64,000 nt of DNA, taken from assembly GCF_030813695.1 (NCBI RefSeq), contig NZ_JAUSVA010000002.1, forward strand, positions 1,364,001 to 1,428,000, given 5' to 3'. Position 1 is the stretch's first letter; the number at the start of each line of letters is the position of its first letter. Both the position numbers and the translations under genes were made by a program. Below are positions 42,788 to 58,984 of this stretch, one piece after another. Under the pieces are notes generated by a model. That model did not search any database. It saw nothing but the letters and a program-made list of their open reading frames with translations, and was not told the origin of the DNA. This DNA is from Kitasatospora herbaricolor (GTDB lineage: Bacteria; Actinomycetota; Actinomycetes; Streptomycetales; Streptomycetaceae).

Positions 42788-44104
42788 GTGCGGCAAGAGC
42801 AACGCGACACCACCGGCCGCCGCAGTAGCAGCACGGCCTCCACCAGGGCGAGCGCCGTCCTGGCGGGCTATCCGGAGCCCGCCGACAAGGCCTCGCTGCG
42901 CCGCACCAACCTGGGCGTGATGCTGCGCCACCTGCGGGAGAACGGCGAGCAGTCCCGCACCCATCTCGCGGCCGCGACCGGCCTGCCCAAGGCCACCGTC
43001 TCGGTCCTGGTGGCCGATCTCATCGAGCGCGGACTGGTCCGCGAAGGAGCGCCCGACCGGGCCGGCGCGGTCGGCCGCCCGCACCGGATGGTCGACCTCG
43101 ACGGCCGCTGGATCTGCGGCGTCGGCGCCGAGATCGGCCCCGACCACATCACCGTCCTCGCCCTGGACCTGCGCGGCACCGTCGTCCACGAGGACCGCCG
43201 CGCCCTGGACGTGCCCGCCCTCACCCCGCAGGCCGCCTTGCGCGAGGTCGCCGACCAGGTCGCCGACTGCCTCAGCGCGGTGGCCGACCTCGGCATGCAC
43301 GCCATCGGGATCACGCTCGTCACCCAGGGGTCGGTGGACGCCGCCTCCGGCACGGTCGCCGTGGCCACCAACTTCGGCTGGCGCGACGTACGGGCGGTGC
43401 ACGAGCTGCGCGCACGGCTCGGGCGGCACGCACCGCCCGTCCTGGTCGAGAACGACGCCGAGTCCGGCGCCCTCGCCGAGTACCTGGCCGCCCCCGGCGC
43501 CGACGTCCGTGAACTCGTCTACGTCACCGGCGGGATCGGCGTCGGCGGGGCCAGCATCTCGGGCGGCAAACTGATCCGCGGCTCGGAGATCGGCCACATG
43601 AGGCTCGACCGCCTCGACCGGCCCTGCGCCTGCGGACGGACCGGCTGCTGGGAGGTCGCCGTCGGACTGCAGGCCTTCCTCGACGCCGCCGCGGACCCCT
43701 CCGACCGGGTCCACGACCTGTCCGTCGACCTCGCCGACCGGCTCGACGACCTGCTGGGCCGCGCCGACGCGGGCGAGCCCCGCACGCTCGCCGCCCTGGC
43801 CGCCCTCGCCGACGACCTGGCCCTGGGACTCGGCATCCTGGTGGACGTACTCAACCCACCAAGAATCGTCCTCGGCGGCTACTTCGCCGTGTTCGGCCGC
43901 TACCTGGTGGACGCGGCGCAGCGGGTCCTCGACGACCGCAGGATCGCGCCCACCCCCGGGCGGGTGGTCGTGACCGCCTCGACGCTCGGCCTCTCCAACG
44001 CCGCCCGGGGCGGCGCCCACCTCGCCCTAGAAGGCATCTTCCAGGACCCCTCCGACCTCCCGGTCCGACCCGAACCGACAGGCGAGCACGCATGGTCCCA
44101 CTGA
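42788..44104 (+). CDS. ROK-family transcriptional repressor
   Basis: This 438-residue regulator has an N-terminal winged helix (RRTNLGVMLRHLRENGEQSR, AAATGLPKATVSVLVADLIE) followed by a ROK sugar-binding domain. The latter carries GVGAEIGPDHITVLALDLRG, VENDAESGALAEYL, GSEIGHMRLD and the zinc motif CACGRTGCWE. This is the NagC/XylR arrangement, a repressor released by sugar rather than an enzyme. GTG 42788 follows GAGGAG. It is divergent from the second importer operon and faces a matching operator. Confidence 0.92.
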   Translation: MRQEQRDTTGRRSSSTASTRASAVLAGYPEPADKASLRRTNLGVMLRHLRENGEQSRTHLAAATGLPKATVSVLVADLIERGLVREGAPDRAGAVGRPHRMVDLDGRWICGVGAEIGPDHITVLALDLRGTVVHEDRRALDVPALTPQAALREVADQVADCLSAVADLGMHAIGITLVTQGSVDAASGTVAVATNFGWRDVRAVHELRARLGRHAPPVLVENDAESGALAEYLAAPGADVRELVYVTGGIGVGGASISGGKLIRGSEIGHMRLDRLDRPCACGRTGCWEVAVGLQAFLDAAADPSDRVHDLSVDLADRLDDLLGRADAGEPRTLAALAALADDLALGLGILVDVLNPPRIVLGGYFAVFGRYLVDAAQRVLDDRRIAPTPGRVVVTASTLGLSNAARGGAHLALEGIFQDPSDLPVRPEPTGEHAWSH

Positions 44105-44759
44105 GCCTCGACCGCCAGACTTGAGGGCAGGAGTCAGAGCTTCGGGTCCGGACGCGGCGCGCACGACCGACCTTTCCGCCGCGGACAGGGGACCGTGTCG
44201 ACGGTGCCGCGACACCGATCACCAGCAGGACGAGTGGGGCTCGACCTTGGGTCGAGAGCCCCTCATACTCGATCCACTCGGTGAACAGCCGGAGTGCCGA
44301 CGGGCCGGCGGCACGGCGCCGGGCTCGGGCGCGCGCGCCCTTGCCCCGCACCACCGTGGGCCGTTGGGCGTCCCTGCCCTGCCGGAAGGCTCGCACAGGA
44401 CGAACTCTTGACTTTTCCCGGCAAGTACTGCCACCTTGTGCTCACAGATGCTCGAACTAACCATTAAACGAGCATCCAGGAACACCATTTGCCACCTGGC
44501 GGGTGCTCGTAGGAGAAGTAAGCACCGGCGAGGGGACAGGCCCACATACCTGGCCGTCCCGTCGGCGGGAGCTCCCGAAACCTCCCGCCCACGGCGGCAG
44601 CGGCCGACGGATTCGTGTCGGCCGCAGGCAGGCGGCCGCGGCGAACGGCTCCGCGCCTCCACCCCGGCGATCCTGCTCCGGCCGTTCCGGCCGCCCCGCG
44701 CCCAGAACGGCCACTTCACGGCTCCCCCACACCGTGCATTGCCCATCGAAGGAGCACTC
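44105..44759. other. Intergenic region before the ricin-lectin protein, with inverted repeat
   Basis: No gene is supported in these 650 bases. A perfect inverted repeat GATGCTCG (44447-44454) and CGAGCATC (44469-44476), 14-base spacer, lies in the only AT-rich patch. The half-site TGCTCG recurs near 44502. This may be the operator of the downstream secreted-protein gene, some 285 bases ahead of its start. AAGGAG before 44760 is its ribosome binding site. Confidence 0.45.
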
Positions 44760-47252
44760 GTGTTCTCCCCTTCCCGCAGAGCTCTGGCGGCGGTGATCAC
44801 CGCTGGCGTCCTCACGCTGTCCGGTACCGCCGTGTCCCCGGCGTCGGCGACCCCACCCAGCGGTACCTACACGATCAGCGTCGGGTCCCCCGTCCCGTAC
44901 GCCTACCCGAACGACACCCCGTCCGCCCCGTACGTCGACAAGGACGGCACCTTCTACTTCCAGCAGTCCAACGCCCAGTACGAGGCCACCGGGCCGCGGT
45001 TCTGGAGCTTCTACACCGGGACCGACTTCGACACCGCCACCAAGTCGAGCGCGATCAGCAACTACGTGAACCCCGCGAACGCGAGCGACAAGAACAACGA
45101 CACCACGTGGCGGTGCAACAACAGCCCGACCGGCGTCGAGGCCACGTACGCGCCGAGCGGCTCCAACTACGCCCAGAAGAACTACTGCGACCTCGCCGGG
45201 GTGTGGGTCGACCCGGACACCGGTGACTGGTACGGCCTGGTGCACAACGAGTTCAGCCCGCAGCCCTTCGGCGACGGCCTGCACTACGACGCGATCGACT
45301 ACACGGTGTCCAAGGACCAGGGCAGGACCTGGGACATCAAGAGCCACGTGATCACCTCCCCGTACAGCACCACCCGGGGCGACACCACCGCGTTCCCGAA
45401 CAAGACCTACTCGTACGGCGACGGCGACCAGCGCCTGTTCGTGGACACCGCCTCCGGGTACTTCTACGTCTACTACGGCTCGCGCATCGTGGATCAGGGG
45501 GCCGGCGGCGGCTGGAAGGCCTTCTACGAGCACGTGGCCCGTGCCCCGATCTCCGGCAAGATGGCACCCGGCTCCTGGCAGAAGTGGTACAACGGCGCCT
45601 GGACCCAGCCCGGCGTCGGCGGCCAGGAGAGCAACATGGTCCCGGTCGGCTCCGGCAGCACCACCGGCTACACCCCCGTGTCCGGCGAGTACAACCCCGC
45701 GAACACCGGCACCGCGGCCCAGCAGATCGCCGCCGGCACGATGCCCGCGACCTCGCCGCTGTTCGTCATGGACATCACCTACAACGCCTACCTGGGCCTC
45801 TACATCGGCCAGCCGCAGGCCGTGACCCAGGACGGCACGTCGCCGCAGTACCTCTACGCCACCGACGACCTCTCCACCCAGAAGTGGTACCCGATCGGCG
45901 ACACCGGCAGCTACCACACGGCGTCCTGGTACCGCTGGTTCCTCGACGGCGCGAACAGGACCAACAACACGATCGTCGGCAAGAGCTTCCGCTCCTACTG
46001 CTCTTTCGGCTGCTCGAAGAAGGCCGACGGCACCACCTCGTCCGGCGAGTACGTCGACCTCACCATCACCCCCTCCTCCCCTGCCGCGGCGCCGGTCGAT
46101 CCGACCAAGACCTACCGGATCGCCAACGGCAACGGCCGGATCCTGGCCCAGGTCTCCGGCGGCTCCGCGACCACCTCGCTGGCCGGCGCCACCGGCTCCG
46201 CCCTGGAGTCCTGGATCTTCAGCGCCAACGGCGACGGGTCCTACCGGATCACCAACTCCTCCACCAGCCAACTGCTCGGTGTCGACACCACCACCACCGG
46301 CCGTACCTGGGGTGCCCAACCGACCGTCACCACCGCCGCACCGAGCGGTCCCAGCGTCGGACAGCAGTGGTGGGTCGTCCCCGGCACCACCACCTCCGGA
46401 GCAGCCACCGGCACCCTCAAGCTGGTCAACCGTCACAGCGGCCTGGTGATCGGCCTCTCCGCCGACTCCGCCCGGCTCGCCGAGACCACCCCCACCCGCA
46501 GCTGGACCAACACCACCGGCAACACGGTCGGCGGGACCCGCACCGCGAACGAGCAGACCCTCACCCTCACCCAGACCGGCCCGGCCCCCGAAATCGTCAC
46601 GGTCACCAACCCCGGCAACCGGTCCGGCAACGTCAACACGGCCGTGTCGCTGCAGCTCAGCTCCAACGACTCCGCCGGCAAGCCCCTCACCCTCTCCGCC
46701 ACCGGCCTGCCCGCCGGCCTGTCGATCAACTCCGCCGGCCTGATCACCGGCACCCCGACCACCGCCGGATCCTCGACGGTCACGGTCACCGCCTCCTCCG
46801 GCACCGCCACCGGCACGACCTCCTTCACCTGGGCCGTCAACCCGGTACTCAGCGGCACCCACACCCTGACCACCGGAGGCAAGGCACTCGACGACCCGAA
46901 CAGCTCCACCATCCCGAACACCCAGCTCATCACCTGGGCGACCAACGGGGGCACCAACCAGAACTGGGTCTTCACCCAGCAGACGGACGGCAGCTACCAG
47001 ATCGTGAACGGCCTCTCCAACCTCTGCATGGACGTCAGCGGCAACTCCACCAACGCCGGCGCCCAGATCATCCAGTGGACCTGCACCGGCGGCAACAACC
47101 AGCACTGGGTGATCACCCCGATCACCGGCGGCTACACCGTCACCTCCAAGAGCAGCGGGCTGCTGCTCACCACCGCCTCGACCTCCAACGGCGCCCTGGT
47201 CACCCAGCAGCCGGACACCGGCTCCGCCCTCCAGCACTGGATCATCAACTGA
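44760..47252 (+). CDS. Large secreted carbohydrate-active protein with two ricin-type lectin modules
   Basis: This 830-residue exported protein starts at GTG 44760 behind AAGGAG. A Sec signal (RRALAAVITAGVLTLSGTAV, cleavage near SASA) leads to a domain of about 400 residues with propeller-like strands (VDKDGTFYFQQSNAQYEATG, YGLVHNEFSPQPFGDGLHYD, YVYYGSRIVDQG). This domain resembles glycoside-hydrolase propellers, but I cannot assign a family or catalytic residues. A first ricin-B-like module follows (TYRIANGNGRILAQVSGGS), then a putative Ig/cadherin-like module (LSATGLPAGLSINSAGLITG), then a typical ricin-B/CBM13 module with QNWVFTQQTDGSYQI and NLCMDVSGNSTNAGAQIIQW. It probably binds and degrades polysaccharide outside the cell. 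Confidence 0.8.
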   Translation: MFSPSRRALAAVITAGVLTLSGTAVSPASATPPSGTYTISVGSPVPYAYPNDTPSAPYVDKDGTFYFQQSNAQYEATGPRFWSFYTGTDFDTATKSSAISNYVNPANASDKNNDTTWRCNNSPTGVEATYAPSGSNYAQKNYCDLAGVWVDPDTGDWYGLVHNEFSPQPFGDGLHYDAIDYTVSKDQGRTWDIKSHVITSPYSTTRGDTTAFPNKTYSYGDGDQRLFVDTASGYFYVYYGSRIVDQGAGGGWKAFYEHVARAPISGKMAPGSWQKWYNGAWTQPGVGGQESNMVPVGSGSTTGYTPVSGEYNPANTGTAAQQIAAGTMPATSPLFVMDITYNAYLGLYIGQPQAVTQDGTSPQYLYATDDLSTQKWYPIGDTGSYHTASWYRWFLDGANRTNNTIVGKSFRSYCSFGCSKKADGTTSSGEYVDLTITPSSPAAAPVDPTKTYRIANGNGRILAQVSGGSATTSLAGATGSALESWIFSANGDGSYRITNSSTSQLLGVDTTTTGRTWGAQPTVTTAAPSGPSVGQQWWVVPGTTTSGAATGTLKLVNRHSGLVIGLSADSARLAETTPTRSWTNTTGNTVGGTRTANEQTLTLTQTGPAPEIVTVTNPGNRSGNVNTAVSLQLSSNDSAGKPLTLSATGLPAGLSINSAGLITGTPTTAGSSTVTVTASSGTATGTTSFTWAVNPVLSGTHTLTTGGKALDDPNSSTIPNTQLITWATNGGTNQNWVFTQQTDGSYQIVNGLSNLCMDVSGNSTNAGAQIIQWTCTGGNNQHWVITPITGGYTVTSKSSGLLLTTASTSNGALVTQQPDTGSALQHWIIN

Positions 47253-47292
47253 CCGCCACCCCACAAGGGCGCACCTGACCCACCCAGCCGAC

Positions 47293-47323
47293 GGGGCCCT
47301 GCGGACACCCACCGCAGGGCCCC
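47293..47323 (+). terminator. Strong hairpin terminator after the ricin-lectin gene
   Basis: GGGGCCCTGCGG (47293-47304) and CCGCAGGGCCCC (47312-47323) form a perfect 12-bp stem with a 7-base loop about 40 bases after the stop codon. Confidence 0.85.
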
Positions 47324-47437
47324 CTCCCCTTTCCCCGACCTGGCCGGGTGCAGCATCCGGCCTCCCGGCCCAGCGCGCCCTGCGCGTGAGCCGGACAATC
47401 CGACGGCGTCCGCGGTCCTGGAGCGCCCCCGCCCGAA

Positions 47438-47625
47438 CGCCTCAACCCCCAGGCCGGCGCACTGGCCCCGCTGCTGCCCGCTCTCGCCCACCGACTGCCC
47501 CCGCACCCCGCCCTCCCGGACGACACCCGTGCCGGACGCTTCCAGCTGATGGGCGCGGTGCGCTCCGTGCTCGACGCCGTGAGCCCCCTGGCCCTGGTGC
47601 TGGAGGACCTACATCACGTCGCCAA
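47438..47625 (+). pseudogene. LuxR-type AAA ATPase relic (Walker B region)
   Basis: The plus strand reads ALAPLLPALAHRLPPHPALP, then LMGAVRSVLDAVSPLALVLE, followed by DLHHV. This matches the stretch leading to the Walker B motif of large LuxR-family (MalT/LAL-like) ATPase regulators. The Walker A region before it and everything after are absent, so only a small fragment survives. Confidence 0.5.
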
Positions 47626-47819
47626 CGTCCTCAAGACTTCACACCACCCGCAACAACGTCACCGATCTCCGCACCACCATCGACAACTTCTGATCCCCAC
47701 CGCCCTGCGGGCACTGTTGTGTGTGACGCTTCCCGCGCTCTGGGTACCACAGGGTCAGGGGGTTGACGACTTCGCCGTACGTCGCCGTCCCGGTGAACGC
47801 TTCCGTCAGGCTTCGCTCC

Positions 47820-48170
47820 ACCACTCGTCCGTAGTTGTGCGGGCGGCCTCCGCGTGGGGGAGGGCAGTTCCAGCATCTGGCAGCCGACCGCGTTGGGCTG
47901 CCGGACGATGGAGCGGGCCTCGGTGGTGTGCAGGGAGAAGACGAACGGTCCGGGCACCAGCAGCACACGGCAGAGGCCGGCCGTCACTTGGTGGACCAGT
48001 CGCTCCAGCGCGGGCACCGGCCCACGGGAGCGGCAGCCGTTGTCCAGATGGACCACCGACTCGGGCAGCCCGAGCAGACTGGCCATCCGGCAAACGGCGC
48101 TGCAGGTGGCCTTCCCTCTGCCACCTGTCGTACGGATAGCAGCGCAGGTAGATCGCCGTTCCCCGGTGGC
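47820..48170 (-). pseudogene. Resolvase-like protein, frameshifted
   Basis: The reverse strand begins RGTAIYLRCYPYDRWQREGH in one frame, then continues in another frame as ASLLGLPESVVHLDNGCRSR, VPALERLVHQVTAGLCRVLL, PGPFVFSLHTTEARSIVRQ and MLELPSPTRRPPA. This is the layout of small streptomycete proteins related to the catalytic domain of serine recombinases, which open AIYLRCYP-like and contain IPGPFVFSLDD-like strings. The catalytic Ser region is replaced in this subgroup. The frame break near 48110 makes this copy a pseudogene. Confidence 0.55.
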
Positions 48171-48411
48171 GCTTCGAGCGGTGTTGATGCGCATGACGTC
48201 CGCCTCCTCCAAGGACCTCCGGAGGCGCCCGACTCGGGGTTGAGAATCTGATGTCCGCCTCTGTTCCCAGAGAACGCCGACGGGCAATTCGAGTCCATGG
48301 TCCGGGAACTCGGGTTCGGCTACATCTCGCGTCATTCGCAAGGGAACGATAGGTAGTCCACCCCGTATCCGGACTCCCCCTCCGCAGGCCCACACTGGGC
48401 GGCCTGCCTCA

Positions 48412-50093
48412 TCACCGGGGGATAACCGGCAGGAGGATGCGGCTGGGGTGTGCGGGGTTGTGGAAGACCGTCTGCCGGGCCGTGCGCAGGATGGTCGCCT
48501 CACTGGGAGGGGCGCCGGTGTTGGGATTGCGGTCCCAGCGGGGGAAGCTGCTGGAGGTGATCTGGACGCTCAGACGGTGCCCGGCCGGGAAGACTTGGCC
48601 GGTCGACCAGAGGTCGATCCGATGTTCGTCCGGTTCGCCTGGCCGACATCGGATGCGGCGGATCCCGTCCGCGATGTTGAGGGATCGTCCCTCCTGGTCG
48701 ACGTCGCACAGGCGGGCGACCCAGTCGGTGGAGGGCGCGTCGCTGGCCGCATCGAGTAGCACGGTGAGGCGGCCGGTGACTTCCAGGTCATGGCTCAGCG
48801 GCTCGCTGGTGTAGACAAGGACGTCGGGGCGTTGCTCAACGGCGCGCTGGTCCTGCGGGCCCGGCGGGTAGGCGCTGGCCATCAGCAGGTTTCCGCCGCA
48901 GGTCGCCACTGGGTCGGTGGGGTCGTAGCAATAGGAGTCGGGATCCTCACCGTGGTGCGGGGGTCGCTGGGAGAGCTTGCCCTGAGCGTGCAGGTAAAAG
49001 GAGGTCTGCGTGGCGCGGGCCAGGGGCCAGGTGTCTTCGTCGCGCCAGCGGTCCGGGCCCATGACGAAGATCTTGACGGGTGCGGTCTCGGGCTCCGGAG
49101 AGAGCGCCGTGGGGGGTTTGAGCCAGCGGTCGAGCCAGTCGAGGCGTCGGGCGATCAGGGACGACGTCAGGTCGAGGGAGGCGGCACTGGCGGCGGTTCC
49201 GTAGTCGACCTGGCCGACCCGGCTGAGATGGCCGCTGGCGTGGTCCCAGGGACCCATCGTCAGTTGGGCGGGCCATCCGGTGGCGGCCATGGCGGTGTAG
49301 TTGTCCAGGACTCCTTGGGCGAAGACGTCATACCAGCCGCCCGCGTGAAAGGTGGGCAGCGAGATCCTGGAGTGTCTGCCCGCGACGCGGGTGTCGTCCT
49401 CGGCGGCGGGATCGTCCTGGGCACGTTCGAAGCCCACTTCCGGGATGCGGTGGCGGGCGAAGGCGGGGAATCGGCCGGCGGGCAGTTCCCAGTAGGTTCG
49501 GTCCTTGAGGTGGTCGAGGTCGGCGATCAGGGCGAGCGTCGCGGCCCGGCGCTGGGCGGGGTCAGCCGGGCCTGTGCGAGTGAGGTAGTCGATGCCCAAA
49601 ACGAGCGACAGGTATCCGCTGAGGCCAAGTTCAATGGCGCCGCCGCGGGTCCACAGGCCGTCGTGGGGGTCTGACCAGGTGAAGGTGGGCGTCAGAACCT
49701 TGAGTTCCGGGGGTGCGGCCAGGGCGGCCATCCACTGGGCGTTGCCCAGATAGCTGGCGCCGATCATGCCGACATCTCCGGTGGAGCGGGGCAGCCCTGC
49801 GGCCCACCGCACGGTGTCGTAGCCGTCGTGGGCCTCGTGGGTCAGGGGCTGCCACCGGCCCTGGGAGGAGGCCCGCCCGCGGGTGTTCTGCACGATCACC
49901 AGGTAGCCGCGCTTGACCGCGGCGACCGGGTCCAGCCCCGCCGCAATCATCGGCAAGGACTTCTCGTACGGGGTCCTGGCGAGGAGAGCCGGCCACGGGC
50001 CTGGCCCCCGGGCCGATAGACGTCCGCGTACAGCAGGACGCCGTCCCGCATCGCGACGGGGACTTCGAAGTCGACTTCCATGCGCTCAGTCAT
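48412..50093 (-). pseudogene. CocE/NonD-family hydrolase, frameshifted near 50010
   Basis: The gene encodes an alpha/beta-hydrolase of the CocE/NonD (X-Pro dipeptidyl-peptidase S15-like) family. From ATG 50093 the product reads MRDGVLLYADVYRPG, then shifts frame at a GGGGG run near 50010 and continues GPWPALLARTPYEKSLPMIA. The rest is complete: nucleophile GMIGASYLGNAQW, Asp region TFHAGGWYDVFAQG, His region GPWDHASGH, and the C-terminal jelly roll ending at 48412. Apart from the single-base shift the gene looks intact, so a sequencing error or phase variation is possible. Confidence 0.8.
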
Positions 50094-50352
50094 GATCCAC
50101 GTGCCTTCCACAGCCGCCAGCCGGGGTGTTTTGCCGGGCGGACATGTGATGCGAGGGTGGCGTTTGCGGTGGTACCCGTCCTCGTCAGCCGGTCCCATCG
50201 GGTCATCCGGCACGGCCGCTCGACATTGCAAGGTTACCGGGATCTGCAACAAATCTTCGGCCCGACCAGCGACGGATGTGCACCTTGAATCCTTCCCCAC
50301 CTTCGAGCCGGACGAGTGGATGAGAAAGCCGCTACAGCGGTTACCCTGCCGG

Positions 50353-52131
50353 TCAGGAGAACAGCTCGGACCAGGTGCCGTTGCCGTAGGGCTTGATGCC
50401 ACCACTGTTGTATCCGACACCGATTCGCGTGTAATCGCAGTTGACGATGTTCCGGTAGTGACCGCCACTCGGTCCTTCCGAGTACCAGCCCTGGAACGTG
50501 GCGTCCGGTGAGCTTGAACCGGCCGCCAGATTTTCGCCGACCGATCCGATGAAACCGAGCCTCTTGGCACGGTCGTTGACCGTTTCACCGGAAGGAGAGG
50601 TGTGGCCGAAATACTGCTTGGCCATCTCCTCGTTCACGTGATCCCGAGCTATCAGCACCAAGGTGCTGTCGGCCTTCAGACGGCTCTTGCAGCCGGCCCT
50701 GTCCCGAGCGTCGTTCGTGAGGTCGACAACCCTTTGCTCCAGCGGTGTCATGAGGGCGGCCTTCGGAGGGGCGGCGGGGTCACCGCTGCCACTGCCGGTG
50801 GCACGCGATGCTGAACCCGAAGCTGTCGGCTTCAGGGACGGTGCACCGAGCGCTACGTTCTCTGCCTCCGCGACTCCGGGGGAAGGAAGGGAAGACGGCG
50901 CCGAAACCGGCGAAGGCGTGGCTGGCGCGGAGGTGGCCGACCGCGCCTCCGCCGGCGTTTCCGCGGCCCCGGGGGCGCCCCGCCCGTCGGCGGCAGGGGC
51001 GCTGACCCTGCCCGAAGCCTTGTGTTCCTGGCCGGTCATGCTTCTGGCCGCAACAACGGTCAGCCCTGCGATCGCGCAGGTGGCAGAGGCTGCCAACACC
51101 ACGTTGCGAATGGTCTTCCCACGACGGCGGGAGGGGGACGCGTATGTCACCTTGATGGTCCTGTCCTGATGAACGGTACGGAAGGTTTCCGCCGCTGTGG
51201 CGGACGAGTCGCGTCCTGCAGGGAAGGACGTCGATGCGGAGAGTTCGGAAGGCGTCCCTGGCTGCGGTGCGGGCGGGATCGCAGACGGGCCGTACCCTGT
51301 GGCGAGGCCCGTCGGAACCACTTGCCTGTCGGCCAGGGCCACGAGCAACCCGGCTGGAACACCGACAAGCATGAAGTCGGCCAACAGCCGTTCAGTACGT
51401 ACGAGGCGGTCCGAAAGACCTGCGCAGGCGGCGCAGCGGCGCAGATGTCGCGCGGTGCGCTTGCGCCACAAGGAGCAGGGAACGTTGTCCCAGGCGGTGA
51501 TGGTGGCCTGCAGCCCCGCACACCTGGGCCGGGTGTTCAACGCCTCGACCAGGGTGCGCGAGATCTGCAGCTGCGCGTGCATCCGCTGGATGCGGACGGC
51601 GGCGTGTGCGGGTGACAGACCGAGAGCGGCGGCGACGTCGCAGCGGTTCATCTCACCGATGATCTCCAGCCACCACAGTGACAACAGGTCCTGGTTGACG
51701 GGGTCGAGCCAGCGGGCGGCCTCGACAGTGCGGCGGCGCTGTTCCGACAGATCCAACTTCAGGGCCGACAGCTTGGTGAAGCTCGCCCCTGCGCCGCCGG
51801 TCCGGACGGCAGCCTCATCGATCATCCCTGTGCGCTCGGAATCCCTGTGCAGCCGCCGCCGGCGGTCGTCGACCTGATGCAGGGCAATGGCCGACAACCA
51901 GCCCTTGAAACGCTCCGGGTCGCGAAGCGCCCGTATGTCTCTTATCGCACGAAGCATTGTCTCCTGTACGACATCGTCGATATCGGCCTGCCCGGTGAGG
52001 CCTCGCTCGACAATTGCGTACGTCATCGGCAGGCAGAAGCTCAAAAGCTCCTGCATAGCAGCCCGATCTCCTCCTTGAGCTGCGACGACCAGGGCAGCCG
52101 GTGAACGCTGCCCGTCGTCAGGGTGACTCAT
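50353..52131 (-). CDS. ECF-type sigma factor fused to zinc anti-sigma motif, membrane segment and extracytoplasmic CAP domain
   Basis: This 592-residue single frame combines a complete signalling path. Residues 27-94 form sigma region 2 (ADIDDVVQETMLRAIRDIRA, RFKGWLSAIALHQVDDRRRR). Residues 141-195 form region 4 (NRCDVAAALGLSPAHAAVRI). HLRRCAAC (229-236) fits the HxxxCxxC zinc anti-sigma signature. A membrane segment (about 342-363, VVLAASATCAIAGLTVVAA) is followed by a Pro/Ser/Ala-rich linker. Residues 462-592 are a CAP/SCP domain with LVLIARDHVNEEMAKQYFGH, SVGENLAAG and GHYRNIVNCDYTRIGVGY. The predicted topology puts the sigma part inside and the CAP domain outside. ECF groups with long C-terminal extensions are known in actinobacteria; the CAP fusion suggests wall or ligand sensing. 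Confidence 0.88.
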   Translation of the reverse strand: MSHPDDGQRSPAALVVAAQGGDRAAMQELLSFCLPMTYAIVERGLTGQADIDDVVQETMLRAIRDIRALRDPERFKGWLSAIALHQVDDRRRRLHRDSERTGMIDEAAVRTGGAGASFTKLSALKLDLSEQRRRTVEAARWLDPVNQDLLSLWWLEIIGEMNRCDVAAALGLSPAHAAVRIQRMHAQLQISRTLVEALNTRPRCAGLQATITAWDNVPCSLWRKRTARHLRRCAACAGLSDRLVRTERLLADFMLVGVPAGLLVALADRQVVPTGLATGYGPSAIPPAPQPGTPSELSASTSFPAGRDSSATAAETFRTVHQDRTIKVTYASPSRRRGKTIRNVVLAASATCAIAGLTVVAARSMTGQEHKASGRVSAPAADGRGAPGAAETPAEARSATSAPATPSPVSAPSSLPSPGVAEAENVALGAPSLKPTASGSASRATGSGSGDPAAPPKAALMTPLEQRVVDLTNDARDRAGCKSRLKADSTLVLIARDHVNEEMAKQYFGHTSPSGETVNDRAKRLGFIGSVGENLAAGSSSPDATFQGWYSEGPSGGHYRNIVNCDYTRIGVGYNSGGIKPYGNGTWSELFS

Positions 52132-52570
52132 CGAAAAATCCTCTCCTGCTCTTACCTATCGACCGACTGGGACGTTATCCGGACTTGAAGCGTTCGAACA
52201 ATGACGAACGGCACCAAGAAATTGTGTTACCCGCGGAGCCCGTCCGGCGCCCGGCCGTCGCTCGGCTCAGAAGGGAAGCTCCAGCTGCGAACGCAAGGCA
52301 GCAGGTCGGTCAACAGCAGGAGGATCGTCATCCGATCGAACACCACTGAAAAGGGCCCAATGAAAACGTTATTTCCGCGGGTTCGACTCGGCCGGAAGGA
52401 CTCCGCCTCACCACGCTCACGTCGTTGCCGGCGCCGCCGCTCCCCTGCTCGCTCCCGGTCGGACAAGCCGAGCGGCCGAGTTCGAGCCGGTCAAGACCTC
52501 CCCCTGATCCCTTTCGCCTTCCCGCCCGCTCGAAGTCCGCGCAGCCGCCGGGCCGGTCGCTGCCGACGAC
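52132..52570. other. Gap upstream of the sigma-CAP gene
   Basis: About 440 bases without a supported gene. It must include the promoter of the leftward sigma-CAP gene. The first 100 bases are relatively AT-rich. No obvious ECF-type AAC/CGTC promoter pair was recognised by eye. Confidence 0.35.
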
Positions 52571-52917
52571 CTACTGGGAGAGGGAGCGGTGGTGGCATTC
52601 GAAGGGTTCAGGACCGCCTAGCAGTGGAGGCGGAGGCCGATCGGGGGGAGCGTGCTCGATGGCGTCGATGACGACTTCTGCGACGACGAGTAGGACTTGA
52701 CCGTCGATCTCTGTGTCCATGCCCCAGGCGCTGAGGTCGGTGCGGGCGCGCCGGCGGGCGGCGCCGGCGGATTCGGAGTGGTGGGCAACCTCCCAGACCG
52801 CTGGGGTTCTGCTCGGCGGTGAGCCGCCGGGCGGCTCGGGGGGGCGGTCGTGGAACCCGCCGCACCGTCGGCAAGGCCGGGCGGCGTGTCGGTGGGGATG
52901 GTGACGGTGGTGTCCAT
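52571..52917 (-). pseudogene. HATPase anti-sigma kinase relic (RsbW-like), frameshifted and truncated
   Basis: A proper start (ATG 52917 behind GAGGAG) leads into MDTTVTIPTDTPPGLADGAA. At a run of seven G/C (52838-52844) the frame shifts and continues PPGGSPPSRTPAVWEVAHHS, AGAARRRARTDLSAWGMDTE and VLLVVAEVVIDAIEHAPPD. This is the N-terminal part of a GHKL/HATPase anti-sigma kinase up to the Asn/Glu box, here DAIEHA instead of the usual NAVEHA/NAxxH. The nucleotide-binding glycine boxes are missing and the frame stops at 52571. Confidence 0.6.
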
Positions 52918-53443
52918 GGAAGGTCTCCTCTGCATGTCTTCCGCCACGAGGGGGTTGACACGGGAGCGGTCATCCGAAGTCGCATCTGCGAAAACCATGT
53001 CCTCCACCCTCACCCGGCAGGCCGACACGCACACCGGGGGTACTACGCGGAAACTACCTGTGCCTGCCGATGCGGGTATGAGTGAGCGCCGCCGGGCCGG
53101 TTCGCACGTGGTCCTGAGCACCTGCCCTGCGGCGTCCACGGGCCGGGCTGTCCAGGGCTGCGTCTCGTCACGGTCGAGGGTGTTGCCGTCCGCGTCGACT
53201 CGGCTGTGCGGCGGAGTCGCAGGCAGGTCCCTTCAAGTCGGCCCAATCTTCGCGAGGGGGCCCGGTCTCCCGGCAGCCCGGTACCCGGTCCCCGATCGCC
53301 GCCGTACGAACGAGGTGGCCTTCGCTCCGCCGACGCCTGTGTGACATTTTTCTGACCAACCGTCAGTAATCCGTCAGGCGTGCCCCGCTGCAGCACAGAG
53401 CACACCCCACCCCTGCTCACCGGCCCCACCGATCGGACCGAAA
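52918..53443. other. Gap upstream of the HATPase relic and GH27 fragment
   Basis: About 520 bases with no recognisable gene. The part just before 53444 is less GC-rich (TGACATTTTTCTGACC near 53343) and may be the former promoter of the alpha-galactosidase fragment. Confidence 0.35.
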
Positions 53444-53690
53444 ATGACCAACCCCCGCTCCACCACCCGGCGGCGCCTGGCCGCCACCGCCTCGGCCGCC
53501 CTCGTGGCCGCCACCACGCTCGTGGCCACCACCGCCCTCCAGGTCGTGTCCGCCCCGCCCGCGGCCGCCCTCGACAACCACCTCGGGCGCACCCCGCAGA
53601 TGGGGTGGAACAGTTGGAACAAGTTCCGCTGTGCCGTCACAGCTACCGACATCAAGGGTGCCGCGGATGCCATCGTCGCCAACACGACCG
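53444..53690 (+). pseudogene. GH27 alpha-galactosidase, N-terminal fragment
   Basis: From ATG 53444 a Sec/Tat-like signal peptide (TTRRRLAATASAALVAATTL) is followed by LDNHLGRTPQMGWNSWNKF, the diagnostic start of GH27 alpha-galactosidases, and ATDIKGAADAIVANTTGG. The next expected block (AAGYQYVNIDD-like) is absent, and the sequence changes to unrelated, arginine-rich text after about 83 residues. The catalytic aspartates are lost. It seems to be a breakpoint rather than a window edge or a frameshift. Confidence 0.7.
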
Positions 53691-54104
53691 GGGGCGGGGC
53701 CGCATCGGCCGCGCCCCTCCGAGCGCCGCTCGACCCTGTGATCGCCATGACGCTGCCACTCCCTGACGATCCGTCCGCCATTTCGTGGCCCGCAACGGCG
53801 CTCCCGGTCTCCCGGTCGGCCATGACTTGCACCCCAGGTCGATCACGATCGAAAAGTGGTTCACCGGGCAGCCGAGACTGCGAGGTGTCCGGCAGCGCGG
53901 AGCTCTCCGCCACCACGGCCGGGTCGGACAGGCATTCGCGCTCGGCGGCTCACCTTCGACACGGTCGGCGAAACGCGACCGTCGACCTCGCGATCGCCGG
54001 GCAGCGGTCCTCGACGAGTCCGGCGGTTCGTCGTCCGGCACCGGGTCGGACCCTCGCGCCGGTCTCCGTTGCCCGCCCAGGGGCAGGCGGTCTAGCCTGC
54101 GGGT
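53691..54104. other. Unassigned sequence between the GH27 breakpoint and the LuxR regulator
   Basis: No frame here has a recognisable domain. Partly protein-like strings occur on the plus strand (such as PGLPVGHDLHPRSITIEKW at about 53803) and may be debris of another gene. The regulator start at 54105 has no long untranslated leader of note. Confidence 0.3.
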
Positions 54105-56513
54105 ATGGGTGAGTCCGAACGGCGGAGCCGGGGCGCGGCCAACGCCGGTCTTCCCGCCGAACTGACCAGCTTCGTCGGGCGCAGGCGGGAGATCGCCGAG
54201 GTGAGAGGCCTGCTGTCCACCGCCCGCGTGGTGACCCTGCTAGGCCCGGGCGGTATCGGCAAGACACGGCTGGCACTGCGGGTCGCCGACCAGGTCCGTA
54301 GGGCGTTCACGGAGGGGGTCGCGTTCGTCGACCTCGCTCCGGTGCGGGACGCGGACCTGCTCGCCTACACGGTCAGCGATGCCCTGAACATCGCGAGCCG
54401 TAGTCCGCACGACCAGGTGGACGTCATCACGGACTTCCTGCGGGACCGGCAGACGCTGCTGGTGCTCGACAACTGCGAACACCTGGTTGACGCCTGCGCG
54501 GATCTGGTCAACACCGTGCTCCGCGCCGCCCCCGACGTGCGGGTGTTGGCCACGAGCCGGCAGCGTCTCGGAGTCACGGGGGAACGCCTGTGGCAGGTGC
54601 CGCCGCTGGCCGTACCGGATCCGGACCGAACCGGTCAGCCCGCCGCCGTCCCGGAGTCCGAAGCGCTGGCGCTGTTCGCCGCACGGGCCGCGACGGTGAG
54701 CGACTTCGTCCTCACCGAGGACAACTGGCCCGAGGTGTCGCGGCTGTGCCGCAGGATGGACGGCCTGCCGCTGGCCATCGAACTAGCCGCGGCCGGCACC
54801 AGGGTCCTCTCCCCCGGCGACATCCTGGAGCGGCTCGACGGCAGGGTCCGCATCCTCGCCTCCACCGACCGTGGTGCACCCTCCCGCCACCGCACCCTGG
54901 GGGCGGTCGTGGACGGGAGCTACGACCTGTGCTCACCGCAGGAACGGCTCCTGTGGTCCCGGATGTCCGTCTTCGCCCGCGGCTTCACCCTGCCCGCCGC
55001 CGAGCAGGTCTGCAGCGACGAGAGCATTCCCCCCGACACCGTCCTCGACCTGGTCACCGGCCTGGTCGACAAGTCGATCCTGATTCCCGAACGGCATCCC
55101 ACCGAGATCCACTACCGCCTCCTGGACACCCTCGCCCGCTACGGCCGGGACCGGCTCCGCGAAGCCGGTGAGGAGGACGCCGTCCGCCGCCGCCACCGGG
55201 ACTTCTACGCCGCCATGTCCACACGGTTCTCCACCGAGTGGTTCGGCCCCGGCCAGGTCGAGCAGGCCCGGCGGATGCGGGCGGAGCACGCCAACCTGCG
55301 GGCCGCCCTGGACCACTGCCTCACCACACCCGGCGAGGGCCGGGCCGGTTTGGTCATGGCAACCGACCTCATCCACTACTGGGTGGCATGCGGGCACATC
55401 ACCGAGGGCCGGCACTGGCTCGAGCGGGCACTCGCCCTCAACCCCCAACCCACCCCGGAACGGGCCAGCGGGCTGCGCCGGCTCGGTTCCATCGCCGCGA
55501 GACAGGGCGACGCGGCCACCGCCGTCCCTGCGCTGGAGGAGTGCCGGGCCATCGCCCGTCGACTGGGAGACGGCGTCCTGGACGCGGAGGCCATGGCCAT
55601 GCTCGGGCAGGCCGCCATCACCGCAGGAGACCCCGAAGCGGGTCTTCCCTACCTGCAGGAGTCGGCCGAGCGCCTGCGCCGGCTACACCACCCACCGGAG
55701 CAGTACATCTATCTCCCGCTCCTCGTAGCCCTGGCCAAGCTCCAGCTCGGCGCATTCGACCAGGCGGCCGTAGCGGCCGAGGAGGCCTGCCGGCTCTGCT
55801 CCCGGTCCGGCGACCGCTGGTACCTGGCCGCGGCCCTCCTCCACATCGGATACGCCGAGATCGGCCGGGGCAATCCGGCCGCAGCCGCCGCGTACGCCGT
55901 CCGAGCCATGGACATTGCCCACGACTTCGACGACCCCACGACCGTCGGTCTGGCACTGCTCTGCCTGGCTTATACCGCCATGGCGACCGGAGATCACCGA
56001 CGCGGCGCCGTGCTCACGGGAATCTGCCGCGGCATCTGGCAGCAGGCCGGCATGTCTCTCGGCATCGCGGCCCTCTTCAGCCCGACGATGCAGCCACTCG
56101 AAGCCGCGGCCAGCGCCGAACTCGGCGAAACCGAATTCCGGGGCGCAGTGGCCTACGGCACCGGGCTCGACCTCGACCAGGCCGTCGCGTTCGCGCACGG
56201 CGCCGACAGCGCGGCCATGGACCGGCCCGGCCGGAGTGACAGTCCGCTGACCAGACGCGAACGGCAGGTCGCGGATCTCGTGGCCGAGGGCCTGTCGAAC
56301 AAGCAGATAGCGGCCGACCTGGTCATCTCCCAGCGCACCGCCGAAGGCCACATCGAGCACATCCTCACCAAGCTCGGCTTCTCCTCCCGCACACAGATCG
56401 CCGCCTGGGTCGTCCGGACCGCAAACACCGTGCAGCATCCCCCCGCGAGGCACCAGAGGGCGTCGCCACCTCCGGCGGCCGGTACCCCGCTGCCTCCGGG
56501 CCAGCACACCTGA
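54105..56513 (+). CDS. LuxR-family regulator with AfsR/NB-ARC-like ATPase and TPR-like repeats
   Basis: This 802-residue cytoplasmic regulator has an N-terminal STAND-type ATPase. TSFVGRRREIAEVRGLL leads to Walker A GPGGIGKTR (residues 47-55), with Walker B QTLLVLDNCEHLVDAC and the sensor-like RVLATSRQRLGV and DGLPLAIELAA. A long middle region of helical repeats follows (residues about 380-690). The C-terminal LuxR helix-turn-helix reads LTRRERQVADLVAEGLSNKQ, IAADLVISQRTAEGHIEHIL. Proteins of this layout activate specialised metabolism or catabolic genes on ligand binding; the target is not evident from the relic-filled neighbourhood. Confidence 0.9.
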   Translation: MGESERRSRGAANAGLPAELTSFVGRRREIAEVRGLLSTARVVTLLGPGGIGKTRLALRVADQVRRAFTEGVAFVDLAPVRDADLLAYTVSDALNIASRSPHDQVDVITDFLRDRQTLLVLDNCEHLVDACADLVNTVLRAAPDVRVLATSRQRLGVTGERLWQVPPLAVPDPDRTGQPAAVPESEALALFAARAATVSDFVLTEDNWPEVSRLCRRMDGLPLAIELAAAGTRVLSPGDILERLDGRVRILASTDRGAPSRHRTLGAVVDGSYDLCSPQERLLWSRMSVFARGFTLPAAEQVCSDESIPPDTVLDLVTGLVDKSILIPERHPTEIHYRLLDTLARYGRDRLREAGEEDAVRRRHRDFYAAMSTRFSTEWFGPGQVEQARRMRAEHANLRAALDHCLTTPGEGRAGLVMATDLIHYWVACGHITEGRHWLERALALNPQPTPERASGLRRLGSIAARQGDAATAVPALEECRAIARRLGDGVLDAEAMAMLGQAAITAGDPEAGLPYLQESAERLRRLHHPPEQYIYLPLLVALAKLQLGAFDQAAVAAEEACRLCSRSGDRWYLAAALLHIGYAEIGRGNPAAAAAYAVRAMDIAHDFDDPTTVGLALLCLAYTAMATGDHRRGAVLTGICRGIWQQAGMSLGIAALFSPTMQPLEAAASAELGETEFRGAVAYGTGLDLDQAVAFAHGADSAAMDRPGRSDSPLTRRERQVADLVAEGLSNKQIAADLVISQRTAEGHIEHILTKLGFSSRTQIAAWVVRTANTVQHPPARHQRASPPPAAGTPLPPGQHT

Positions 56514-57731
56514 GGGCGATCGAGGGCGTTGAAACGCGGGCGGGGTCTGTCCATTGAACGGCTGTGTCCCGCAATCGGCGGTAGCGCTGTGTAGTGGTCA
56601 CTGGATGAGGATGGGTGGCGTAGCAGGGGGAACGCGGCTCGGCCGTGCATCTGTCTCATGATCCGTTTGGTTCGCGTGTCGGTGCCTCGCGTCCTGGCCC
56701 CCGTGCCGCACACCATCGGAGGCCAGGCTGAATCAGCCGGAACTCCTGACAAAACCGATTGCCCCGACGCTCTCACCATCACATGTTTGCGTCAACATCA
56801 CAATGGTGCAAGTGATCGTGAGGTCCCGCTGTTCTCCCTGCACTGCGACCCGGCGCGGGGGTCCGGGTCCGCTGCAGGTGGGAGACGCGGCCCGCCGGTT
56901 GGTGGTGTCGACCATCCTGATGGGGGGTGGATTCCTGGCCGTCCGGTCCTGCCGCTGAGTGGTCGCGGAGGCCAGCTGCGCCGTCCGGGCAGCGGCGGTC
57001 CCAGCCTGCTCGCCCCGGCCAGCCCTCAGCGGTGCCGCCGTCCGTTTGTTCCGAGGCACCCTCGTCGCACTGCGGCTTGCGCCCATCCGTCCCGGCCTTT
57101 CGGTGGCCGGGAGAGGTGACTTCGGGTCGACATCCTGGCGGGGCGGCGCGGCCCCGCTCCTGCCGCCGGCCGGGGCGCCCCTTCACCTTCAGGTGGCCCA
57201 GGTCGGCGAGCCGGGGAGTGGAGATGTCCTGCAGGGCGCAGATGACCGCGCTGAACTCTCGGCCGATCGCACGGCGCCAGCAGGCCAGCTCCCGCAGCAG
57301 AGTCGCACCGCTCCGTCGCCCGCGGCCGGCGGACCGGCGTTGAAGCCGCGGCCCCGCTCGCGGCTCGGCCGGCAGATCCTCGTCCAGGCTCTCGAAGGCG
57401 TCCCGCCACCTCTCCGGCCGCTACCCGTACACCTTCAGCACGGCATGCGGCGCGCCATGGACGGCGGCCTGGTGCGGGGAACGCGGACGGTGTCGGCCGG
57501 CACCCGGTCCGCACCCGGTCGAGGGTCCGGCGACTGCCTCGCCCGGTCGGCGAAGCATTCGTCGGAGTCCTCGGCCCCGGCTACGATCCGCGACTGCCGG
57601 GCGGTAGAACCGCAGGTCGGCAGAGTAGGCTGAAACTAACCGTCACCGCGGCCGGGAGGACGGCCGGCGGCGCGTCCGGGCGACATCGTTGCCGGCGCGT
57701 CCGGGGCTGCGCGCGACGTGACGGTGCTCAA
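56514..57731. other. 1.2 kb without recognisable gene
   Basis: Many short frames exist, none with a domain. A 52-codon frame starting near 56802 and a reverse-strand stretch around 57200-57410 (FSAVICALQDISTPRLADLG) are partly protein-like, but neither has a convincing start and family. The segment is probably decayed DNA. Confidence 0.35.
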
Positions 57732-57793
57732 GGCCGCGGTGTAGCCGCGGCCACCAGGAACGTTTCAGCCGTCTCGGAGGGGCGGAACGTTCC
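57732..57793 (+). promoter_or_regulatory. Two dyads upstream of the orphan binding-protein gene
   Basis: GGCCGCGG-TGTAG-CCGCGGCC (57732-57752) is an 8-bp hairpin. It is followed by the perfect inverted repeat GGAACGTT (57757-57764) and AACGTTCC (57786-57793) with a 21-base spacer. They end about 50 bases before the GTG start. They could be a terminator of an earlier unit plus an operator, or a leader structure. Confidence 0.4.
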
Positions 57794-57841
57794 GAGAGAC
57801 CTCCAAGCCCTTCCGAAGGCACGCGTCCGAAGGCAGGCATC

Positions 57842-58984
57842 GTGGCTGTTTCTCCTCGGCGTCGCGCGTACGCCGTCGCCGCGTGCCTCTGTGCCGTGGC
57901 CCTGGGGCTCGGCGGCAGCGGCTTGGTCAGGGCTGGGCAGCCGGTGGCTCCGGACCGGGCCGCGTCCGCCCAGGCCGCGGGTGGGATGGACGCACTGATC
58001 AGCGCCGCGAAGGCGGAGGGCCGGCTCACCACGAGCGCCCTGCTGCCCCACTGGGCGGGCTACGGGGCTCTGATGGACGGATTCGCCCAGAAGTACGGCA
58101 TCAAGGTCGTCGACGACAATCCGGACGGCAACAGCCAGCAGGAGATCGACGACGTCAAGCGCCTCAAGGGGCAGCCGCAGGCACCCGACGTGCTCGACCT
58201 CGGGGAGGTCTTCGCCCAGTCCGCGGTGCGGGAGGGTCTGCTGGCCCCGTACCGCACCGTCGTGTACGACCAGATCCCGTCCTCCCAGAAGGACGGCAAG
58301 GCCCGCTGGGTCAACAGTTACAGCGGCTACGTCTCCATCGGCTGCGACGCCAACCGCGTCAAGACCTGCCCCGTCTCCTTCAACGACCTGCTCAAGCCCG
58401 AGTACAAGGGCATGGTCGCGCTGACCGGCAAGCCGGCGACCGCCGCGTCGGCCTTCGCGGCCGTGTACGCGGCCGCCCTGGCGAACGGCGGCTCGTTCGA
58501 CAACATCCAGCCGGGGATCGACTTCTTCGCCGACCTGGACAAGGCCGGAAACTACAACCGCGCCAACGCCTCGGTCAGCGCGATCGCCGGCGGCCAGACA
58601 CCGATCGCCATCGAGTGGGACTTCCTCAACCTCCAGCACGCCGACGAGCTCAAGAAGTCGGGCGTGCAGTGGAAGGTCTCCATCCCGTTCGACGGCAGCT
58701 TCTCCCAGAGCTACGCGCAGGCCGTCAACAAGGACGCCCCGCACCCCGCCGCGGCCCGCCTCTGGGAGGAGTACCTCGCCGGCCCGGAGGGCCAGAACCT
58801 GCGGCTGGTGGACTTCGCCCGCCCGGTGCTGATGGACGCGATGGCGAAGAACGGCACTCTCGACACCGCACTCGCCGGCGGACTGCCGACCGTCGAGGGT
58901 ACGCCCACCTTCCCGACGGAGGCGCAACTGGCCAAGGCGCACGAGACCGTCCGGACCAACTGGCCCACGGCCGTGCTCGGCTGA
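57842..58984 (+). CDS. Orphan ABC transporter substrate-binding protein (iron/polyamine/thiamine-type family 1)
   Basis: This 380-residue exported binding protein has an N-terminal signal (RRRAYAVAACLCAVALGLGG) without a clear lipobox. The mature part has ALISAAKAEGRLTTSALLPH, QQEIDDVKRLKGQPQAPDVL and GQTPIAIEWDFLNLQHADEL, as in the FbpA/PotD/ThiB-like group that binds ferric ions, polyamines, phosphonates or thiamine. No permease or ATPase genes follow, where they would normally sit; relics and IS fragments are found instead. It may therefore be orphaned by deletion, or serve a transporter elsewhere. GTG 57842 is the likely start. Confidence 0.8.
   Translation: MAVSPRRRAYAVAACLCAVALGLGGSGLVRAGQPVAPDRAASAQAAGGMDALISAAKAEGRLTTSALLPHWAGYGALMDGFAQKYGIKVVDDNPDGNSQQEIDDVKRLKGQPQAPDVLDLGEVFAQSAVREGLLAPYRTVVYDQIPSSQKDGKARWVNSYSGYVSIGCDANRVKTCPVSFNDLLKPEYKGMVALTGKPATAASAFAAVYAAALANGGSFDNIQPGIDFFADLDKAGNYNRANASVSAIAGGQTPIAIEWDFLNLQHADELKKSGVQWKVSIPFDGSFSQSYAQAVNKDAPHPAAARLWEEYLAGPEGQNLRLVDFARPVLMDAMAKNGTLDTALAGGLPTVEGTPTFPTEAQLAKAHETVRTNWPTAVLG

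What the first reader, a model, noticed from the sequence alone, without database searches (positions are those of the whole stretch)
50353..52131. Single-polypeptide transmembrane sigma factor with extracytoplasmic CAP domain
One uninterrupted frame joins ECF-type sigma regions 2 and 4, an HxxxCxxC zinc anti-sigma signature, a membrane helix, a long Pro/Ser/Ala linker and a CAP/SCP domain. Sensor, anti-sigma and sigma would be one molecule, needing proteolysis or a conformational change to reach RNA polymerase. ECF groups with C-terminal extensions are known, but a CAP output-facing sensor is unusual and its ligand is unknown.
Basis: partly seen in the sequence, partly recalled or inferred. 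Interest (0 to 1): 0.8.

Follow-up and report, generated by a model that had tools for sequence, protein, structure and literature searches.

The report
Membrane-tethered sigma factor with CAP sensor
One uninterrupted bacterial gene joins a gene-switching sigma factor, a zinc anti-sigma motif, a hydrophobic segment and a CAP domain; the CAP part is predicted to sit outside the cell and would likely control release of the sigma part, and relatives carry sugar-acting domains in its place.

Summary
Window 50353-52131 (minus strand) encodes one 592-aa chain: ECF sigma regions 2 and 4, a C-x24-H-x3-C-x2-C motif, a hydrophobic segment, an Ala/Ser/Pro linker and a CAP domain. The zinc-type residues and the CAP cysteine pair are invariant in 122 of 122 aligned sigma-CAP proteins, so it is no misassembly. 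Nor is it rare: the genome has two more such fusions, and the architecture is that of the known groups ECF52/ECF53. New here: (1) the chassis is modular; relatives carry CAP, Glyco_hydro_cc, AbfB or unassigned outer domains. The window protein joins a chassis nearest AbfB/GH fusions to a CAP nearest free-standing CAPs, suggesting an independent swap (AU test p=0.064, not decisive). (2) Many relatives share a promoter-like TGTTATC-N16/17-GTCTCC; 150 family genomes hold 111 sites (reversed control 1): 49 before sigma fusions, 19 before CAP, 12 thaumatin-like and 9 alginate-lyase-like genes, 10 unassigned. The window gene lacks it. Most likely mechanism, untested: a cis-inhibited tethered sigma, released by proteolysis after an outside signal. 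Ligand and targets of the window copy are unknown.

The parts
50353..52131 (-). sigma-ZAS-TM-linker-CAP gene, 592 aa, ATG start
52140..52146 (-). GGAGAGG, likely ribosome-binding site 8 nt before the ATG
   Evidence: sequence; function inferred
51829..52101 (-). sigma region 2 (residues 11-101)
51535..51744 (-). sigma region 4 (residues 130-199)
   Evidence: TIGR02937 25-189; helices in the models; not called by Pfam in the window protein
51367..51534 (-). zinc anti-sigma (ZAS-like) domain, residues 200-255, four short helices
   Evidence: Cys204, His229, Cys233, Cys236 invariant in 122 of 122 and in 60 of 60 across outer-domain types; helices; zinc binding untested
51424..51447 (-). HxxxCxxC motif (residues 229-236)
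51331..51387 (-). first hydrophobic segment (249-267), probably ZAS helix 4, possibly a second membrane helix
51046..51102 (-). predicted membrane helix (344-362), preceded by Arg-rich residues
   Evidence: hydropathy 2.18; more Lys/Arg before than after it in 117 of 122 proteins, equal in 5
50758..51039 (-). Ala/Ser/Pro-rich linker (365-458), predicted disordered
   Evidence: composition; pLDDT under 50 for 298-447
50356..50745 (-). CAP domain (463-592) with Cys481/Cys565 and His510/Glu533/His558

Best explanation
The gene encodes in one uninterrupted chain an ECF-type sigma factor, a C-H-C-C zinc anti-sigma motif, a hydrophobic segment and a CAP domain, and it likely works as a membrane-tethered sigma factor that is predicted to be held inactive by its own zinc part until the outer CAP domain would signal its release. 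Shown by sequence: the order of parts, the invariant zinc-type and CAP residues, and the same chassis in relatives with exchangeable outer domains. Inferred: the CAP domain faces outward (Lys/Arg before the hydrophobic segment, a conserved Cys pair, likeness to free-standing CAP proteins). Inferred: the ZAS part packs on sigma 2 and 4 in cis. Inferred, and the likeliest release route: a ligand or wall change exposes a site for a first protease, an M50-type intramembrane protease then cuts, and the freed sigma binds RNA polymerase. Relatives likely switch on their own genes and secreted CAP, thaumatin-like and polysaccharide-acting proteins through TGTTATC-N16/17-GTCTCC; the window copy has no such site, so its targets are unknown.
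For: Open frame and domains. 122 of 122 sigma-CAP proteins keep Cys204, His229, Cys233, Cys236, Cys481, Cys565, His510, Glu533. The Cys lies 25 residues before HxxxCxxC, the CHCC class of ZAS proteins (23-26 residues) defined in PMC4960319 (passages). Structure: sigma 2, a sigma 4 region, four ZAS helices and CAP folded, linker disordered; PDB matches to sigmaE and to bacterial CAP proteins. Topology: mean 7.9 Lys/Arg in the 15 residues before the membrane segment against 1.0 after; before exceeds after in 117 of 122, equal in 5. Same chassis, other outer domains: 79 loci = 42 CAP (one, L105, cut at its end), 17 Glyco_hydro_cc, 10 AbfB, 3 and 2 of two unassigned kinds, 4 without a usable C-terminus, 1 CAP-only fragment. 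M50 protease matches in the genome. Promoter in relatives. Published precedent for release of a fused ECF: IutY by Prc and RseP; truncated SCO4117 (PMC8999054, PMC5826349; passages).
Against: No experiment. The sigma-ZAS model has pTM 0.56 and the whole model 0.37, so packing of ZAS on sigma is not shown. The window protein has no Pfam zf-HC2 match; 6 of 60 chassis members have one at E up to 1, best E 0.14. The membrane segment is not drawn as a helix (pLDDT under 50). A second hydrophobic segment could reverse the topology; both segments score 1.6 or more in 101 of 122, and in 9 of 122 the segment taken as the membrane helix does not reach 1.6. The window protein itself has only 5 Lys/Arg before and 3 after. 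No family promoter upstream of the window gene; scans of the window are at chance. The CHCC type could mean redox control instead.
Confidence: 0.7

Rival explanations
1. The zinc part is the real sensor: disulfide stress would oxidise the C-H-C-C site and free the tethered sigma without proteolysis, while the CAP domain only anchors or places the protein at the wall.
For: CHCC spacing as in redox-sensing RsrA; all four residues invariant in 60 of 60 chassis members.
Against: The outer domain changes while the chassis stays, which fits outside sensing better. PMC7406223 (passages) notes that the zinc motif in membrane-bound anti-sigmas may be structural.
Confidence: 0.15
2. Both hydrophobic segments span the membrane, so CAP lies in the cytoplasm and the 268-343 stretch lies outside.
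For: Both segments score 1.6 or more in 101 of 122; 2.18 each in the window protein. The review of non-canonical ECFs allows one to two membrane helices.
Against: The Arg-rich stretch lies directly before the second segment; the CAP domain keeps an invariant Cys pair, also seen in the two free-standing CAPs of this genome; its two sigma-CAP paralogues lack a strong first segment (1.0 and 1.37).
Confidence: 0.12
3. The window copy is a decaying paralogue of no present function.
For: Long branch; no family promoter; among the 120 proteins listed in the whole-protein search only one other, P0002, is above 52% identity.
Against: Intact frame; the invariant sigma, zinc and CAP residues checked are kept; P0002, 86% identical, has the same order of parts; GC3 is even, 0.74-0.78 along the gene.
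Confidence: 0.12
4. The CAP domain is not a sensor but cargo that is shed when the sigma is cut loose.
For: Free-standing CAP genes lie next to sigma fusions in relatives and share their promoter; long flexible linker.
Against: It does not explain the GH and AbfB versions, which look like binding or sensing modules; no cleavage evidence.
Confidence: 0.06

Closest known systems
ECF52, SCO4117 of Streptomyces coelicolor (PMC5826349: first of six parts and passages seen)
   Same: ECF sigma, zinc-finger anti-sigma part, membrane segment, Pro-rich stretch and outer domain in one chain; proteolytic release proposed. ECF52 is described as exclusive to Actinobacteria; the 79 loci (best of a capped list) are actinobacterial too.
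   Different: Outer domain is a carbohydrate-binding module, not CAP. The likely ECF52 gene of this genome (L022, NPCBM) is 21% identical to the window protein over the alignment and lies on a very long branch. Its published motif CSGYN-17bps-SRHA differs from TGTTATC-N16/17-GTCTCC.
ECF53 (named in PMC8999054 and PMC10766802; passages)
   Same: Predicted fused anti-sigma and membrane part and, in some ECF52/ECF53 proteins, glycosyl hydrolase or carbohydrate-binding domains, as the GH and AbfB versions of this chassis have. Most likely the group to which this chassis belongs.
   Different: No CAP domain is mentioned in the passages seen; the group profiles and the classification papers were not available, so membership is untested.
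RsgI/SigI of Clostridium thermocellum (PMC12203970 abstract)
   Same: A set of membrane anti-sigma factors that sense different substrates and are cut within the membrane by RseP.
   Different: Anti-sigma factors separate from their sigma (recalled), another sigma class, and no CAP domain named in the abstract.
RsiV of Bacillus subtilis (PMC4183432 abstract)
   Same: An anti-sigma factor that is itself the receptor for an outside ligand, whose binding opens it to site-1 cleavage.
   Different: Separate anti-sigma protein; lysozyme ligand.
IutY of Pseudomonas putida, ECF243 (passages)
   Same: Sigma and membrane anti-sigma in one chain, shown to be freed by proteolysis.
   Different: Iron-starvation surface signalling; no CAP domain described there.

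Membership tests
ECF (group IV) sigma factor | sigma region 2 | tested here: met
   Pfam PF04542 E 6.7e-10; 60 of 60 chassis members match
ECF (group IV) sigma factor | sigma region 4 after a short linker, no region 3 | tested here: met
   TIGR02937 over 25-189, 44.0 against 42.9 bits; helices 144-199. Weak: no Pfam region 4 match in the window protein; 13 of 60 members match Sigma70_r4_2 and 8 Sigma70_r4 at E up to 1
ZAS anti-sigma, CHCC type | HxxxCxxC with a Cys 23-26 residues before it | tested here: met
   Cys204, His229, Cys233, Cys236 in 122 of 122; definition from PMC4960319
ZAS anti-sigma, CHCC type | profile match to zf-HC2 | tested here: inconclusive
   none in the window protein; 6 of 60 members, best E 0.14
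ZAS anti-sigma, CHCC type | binds zinc and holds sigma | not testable with these tools
   pTM 0.56 leaves the packing open
CAP/SCP domain | CAP fold and profile | tested here: met
ECF52 | zinc motif, membrane segment, Pro-rich stretch in cis | tested here: met
   membrane insertion predicted only
ECF52 | carbohydrate-binding (NPCBM-type) outer domain | tested here: not met
   CAP instead; the NPCBM fusion of this genome is another gene
ECF53 | match to the group's own profile | not testable with these tools
   ECF group profiles and papers not held
RsgI-type anti-sigma | separate anti-sigma protein paired with SigI | tested here: not met
   one chain with an ECF-type sigma

The most novel reading that the evidence does not exclude
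A modular receptor-sigma family in which the outer sensor is a tethered copy of the regulon's own secreted products: CAP-bearing sigmas switch on secreted CAP proteins (with thaumatin-like, lyase and protease genes) through a shared TGTTATC-N16/17-GTCTCC promoter, and domain swapping onto one chassis makes new senses, the window protein being an independent CAP swap with altered promoter choice.
Probability: 0.3. Interest if true: 0.85.

Novelty: new variant of a known kind. Interest (0 to 1): 0.62.

Why it matters
Bacteria usually split outside sensing and transcription over several proteins. Here one chain seems to do all of it, and the sensing end is exchangeable, so the family is a natural set of matched receptors on one signalling chassis. 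What bacterial CAP domains bind is largely open (recalled); a CAP fused to a transcription factor would give a readout for finding a ligand. The shared promoter names testable target genes in relatives, whose proteins (CAP, thaumatin family) resemble plant defence proteins (that link is recalled).

Tried and rejected
Misassembly or chance fusion: rejected.

Membership in ECF52: not filed there, since the outer domain differs.

Family promoter upstream of the window gene: not found. Only a reverse-oriented CGTTATCC at 52173-52180; 3-mismatch scans of the window gave 8 and 7 matches against 7.94 and 7.03 expected. In this genome the one-mismatch N16 form adds three sites to the two exact ones; their downstream frames were not classified with the 111 sites, and L168 and L169 do not look like any of the named classes.

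One origin for all CAP fusions: the sigma-ZAS tree of 74 rows (17 of the 91 rows dropped: ECF52, near-copies and rows with cut ends) needs 3 changes of the CAP label and places the window lineage with the AbfB and L043/L056 types at 96/96 (98/95). Holding window and main CAP fusions together is not rejected (AU p 0.0636), so an independent swap is favoured, not proven. A tree of the CAP domain alone was unresolved, with the window on a long branch; my extraction failed for all 29 loci L108-L136, so only four free-standing CAPs entered it. redid the comparison for these 29 by BLAST: 28 show no sigma motif in the frame, 1 does. A 703-aa match of like score (G092:C1) was not fetched.

Cis packing of ZAS on sigma by structure prediction: inconclusive. 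ZAS against PDB by sequence: no anti-sigma match, best E 0.14 to an unrelated enzyme. A structural second look with the sigma-ZAS model listed no anti-sigma chain among its 50 rows; the residues it tested were 7-202. Rfam found nothing in 44000-58000. No tRNA genes in the window. The CAP-only protein search had 24 candidates and 2 hits. Literature: searches found no paper joining CAP with such sigma factors; one search found only the SCO4117 paper and the non-canonical ECF review; the 12 titles listed of 482 and the 4 name no thaumatin-type targets. The ECF classification papers were not held, so CAP fusions may be listed there.

Full report

Conservation. The whole-protein search found 959 proteins among 7995 scored candidates; the 120 listed all have Sigma70_r2 and CAP and all 120 have HxxxCxxC. 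In 122 aligned proteins (window, two paralogues, P0002-P0120) the residues Cys204, His229, Cys233, Cys236 and the CAP residues Cys481, Cys565, His510, Glu533 are invariant; His498 is kept in 116 and His558 in 117. Cys204 lies 25 residues before the motif; PMC4960319 (passages) defines CHCC-type ZAS proteins by a Cys 23-26 residues before it and ties that type to disulfide sensing. The window protein is divergent: sigma 2 46% and CAP 37% identical to the others on average, which are 71% and 66% identical among themselves (1500 sampled pairs); its one close relative there is P0002.

Topology. In 122 proteins the 15 residues before the second hydrophobic segment hold 7.9 Lys/Arg on average against 1.0 after it; before exceeds after in 117, equal in 5. 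This predicts the sigma side inside and CAP outside. Against this, the first segment is also hydrophobic (1.6 or more) in 110 of 122, and the window protein shows only 5 against 3.

The family is modular. Grouping their C-termini gave 42 CAP (L105 among them is cut), 17 Glyco_hydro_cc (PF11790), 10 AbfB (PF05270), 3 and 2 of two kinds without a Pfam match, and 4 without a usable C-terminus; one more (L060) is a CAP-only fragment left out of the trees. Pfam names come from ten representatives. The zinc-type residues and the Trp-Arg-Lys-Arg before them are invariant across 60 members of all kinds. This genome has three sigma-CAP genes (window, L003, L004), one sigma-GH gene (L106) and an NPCBM-bearing, likely ECF52 gene (L022).

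The window copy looks like a separate swap. With residues 8-262 as query, 45 proteins, none with CAP in the Pfam column, rank between P0002 and the first other CAP fusion (P0120) in the 120 listed; they are led by AbfB fusions at 55% identity. The sigma-ZAS tree of 74 rows places the window lineage with the AbfB and L043/L056 types, 96/96, and needs three changes of the CAP label. The AU test does not reject a joint clade of window and main CAP fusions (p 0.0636). In the other direction, of the 29 best CAP loci fetched from other genomes of the family, 28 show no sigma motif in their frame and 1 does.

A shared promoter-like element in relatives. Of 82 upstream regions (window, three own paralogues, 78 loci), 43 hold [TC]GTT[AGT][TC]C-N-[AGC]TCTCC; 14-20 spacer bases were allowed, but only 16 (36 cases) and 17 (7 cases) occur. 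By type: CAP 30 of 44, GH 9 of 18 (3 of 18 hold it reversed), unassigned kind one 1 of 3, AbfB 0 of 10, kind two 0 of 2, cut rows 3 of 5. Four CAP rows (L038, L042, L053, L058) had starts chosen too far upstream, and three own regions were shorter than 300 bases (L106: 93), so these were not fairly tested. The 79 whole loci, both strands (1.92 Mb), hold 54 such matches. In this genome the exact form occurs twice, each time before one of the two other sigma-CAP genes. In 150 genomes drawn from the family it occurs 111 times in 61 of 150 genomes (7 of 17 genera); the reversed control occurs once. All 111 sites were classified by BLAST of the downstream frames against representatives (one site corrected by eye): 49 before sigma fusions, 19 before free-standing CAP genes, 12 thaumatin family (PF00314), 9 alginate-lyase-like (PF05426), 7 of a PATR-repeat protein kind, 3 reprolysin-like metalloproteases (the representative is just under its Pfam cut-off), 1 pectinesterase with ricin domains, 1 ferric reductase-like, 10 unassigned; Pfam names come from ten representatives. 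This is what an autoregulated ECF with a secreted regulon would look like; no expression data were seen. The window gene has no such site, so none of this regulon is claimed for it.

Mechanism and its standing. Most likely the ZAS part holds the sigma in cis at the membrane, an outside event at CAP leads to proteolysis, and the sigma is freed. The fused-ECF route is published for IutY and expected for ECF48/52/53 (PMC8999054, passages; PMC5826349, passages); a receptor-type anti-sigma is known in RsiV (PMC4183432, abstract); substrate-sensing RsgI factors are cut by RseP and then degraded by ClpXP (PMC12203970, abstract). M50 protease matches are found in this genome. Every step after the sequence itself is inference.

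Known or new. The kind is known (ECF52/ECF53-type single-chain sigma). The searches made found no report of CAP as the outer domain, but the classification papers could not be read.

Noticed in passing
window 49800-50160, minus strand: The peptidase S15/PepX-type gene downstream (48412-49956) seems to begin upstream in another frame (start near 50093): a probable frameshift near 50000, decay or sequencing error.
   Followed up: partly
window 53444-54112, plus strand: A signal-peptide-like start and about 80 residues that look by eye like the beginning of an alpha-galactosidase (recalled resemblance), then unrelated sequence; no Pfam match. Possibly a gene remnant.
   Followed up: partly
window 62306-62334 and 62759-62787: The same 29 bases occur twice inside the GH32 gene (61524-63869), as shown; possible internal duplication.
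   Followed up: no
window 44436-47252 and 61524-63869: A ricin-lectin/Ig-like protein and a GH32 enzyme lie within about 12 kb of the sigma-CAP gene.
   Followed up: no
L078, L080, L084, L087, L090, L093, L094, L104 upstream regions; window 52173-52180: In one Streptomyces clade the TGTTATC element points away from the sigma-CAP gene and is followed after 16 bases by GTCAAC (by eye in L080 and L084); the window gene also has a reverse CGTTATCC.
   Followed up: partly
L004 2-1327 and L160: A reprolysin-like metalloprotease gene follows the own-genome sigma-CAP gene L004; a look-alike in another genome carries the family promoter itself.
   Followed up: partly
L068, L086, L088 and L043, L056: Two outer-domain kinds on the same chassis; the representatives scanned (L068, L088, L043) have no Pfam match there.
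   Followed up: no
L157, L162-L166, L183, L188, L194, L195, L199, L201: A free-standing CAP gene and a sigma fusion lie side by side, each with its own copy of the promoter.
   Followed up: yes
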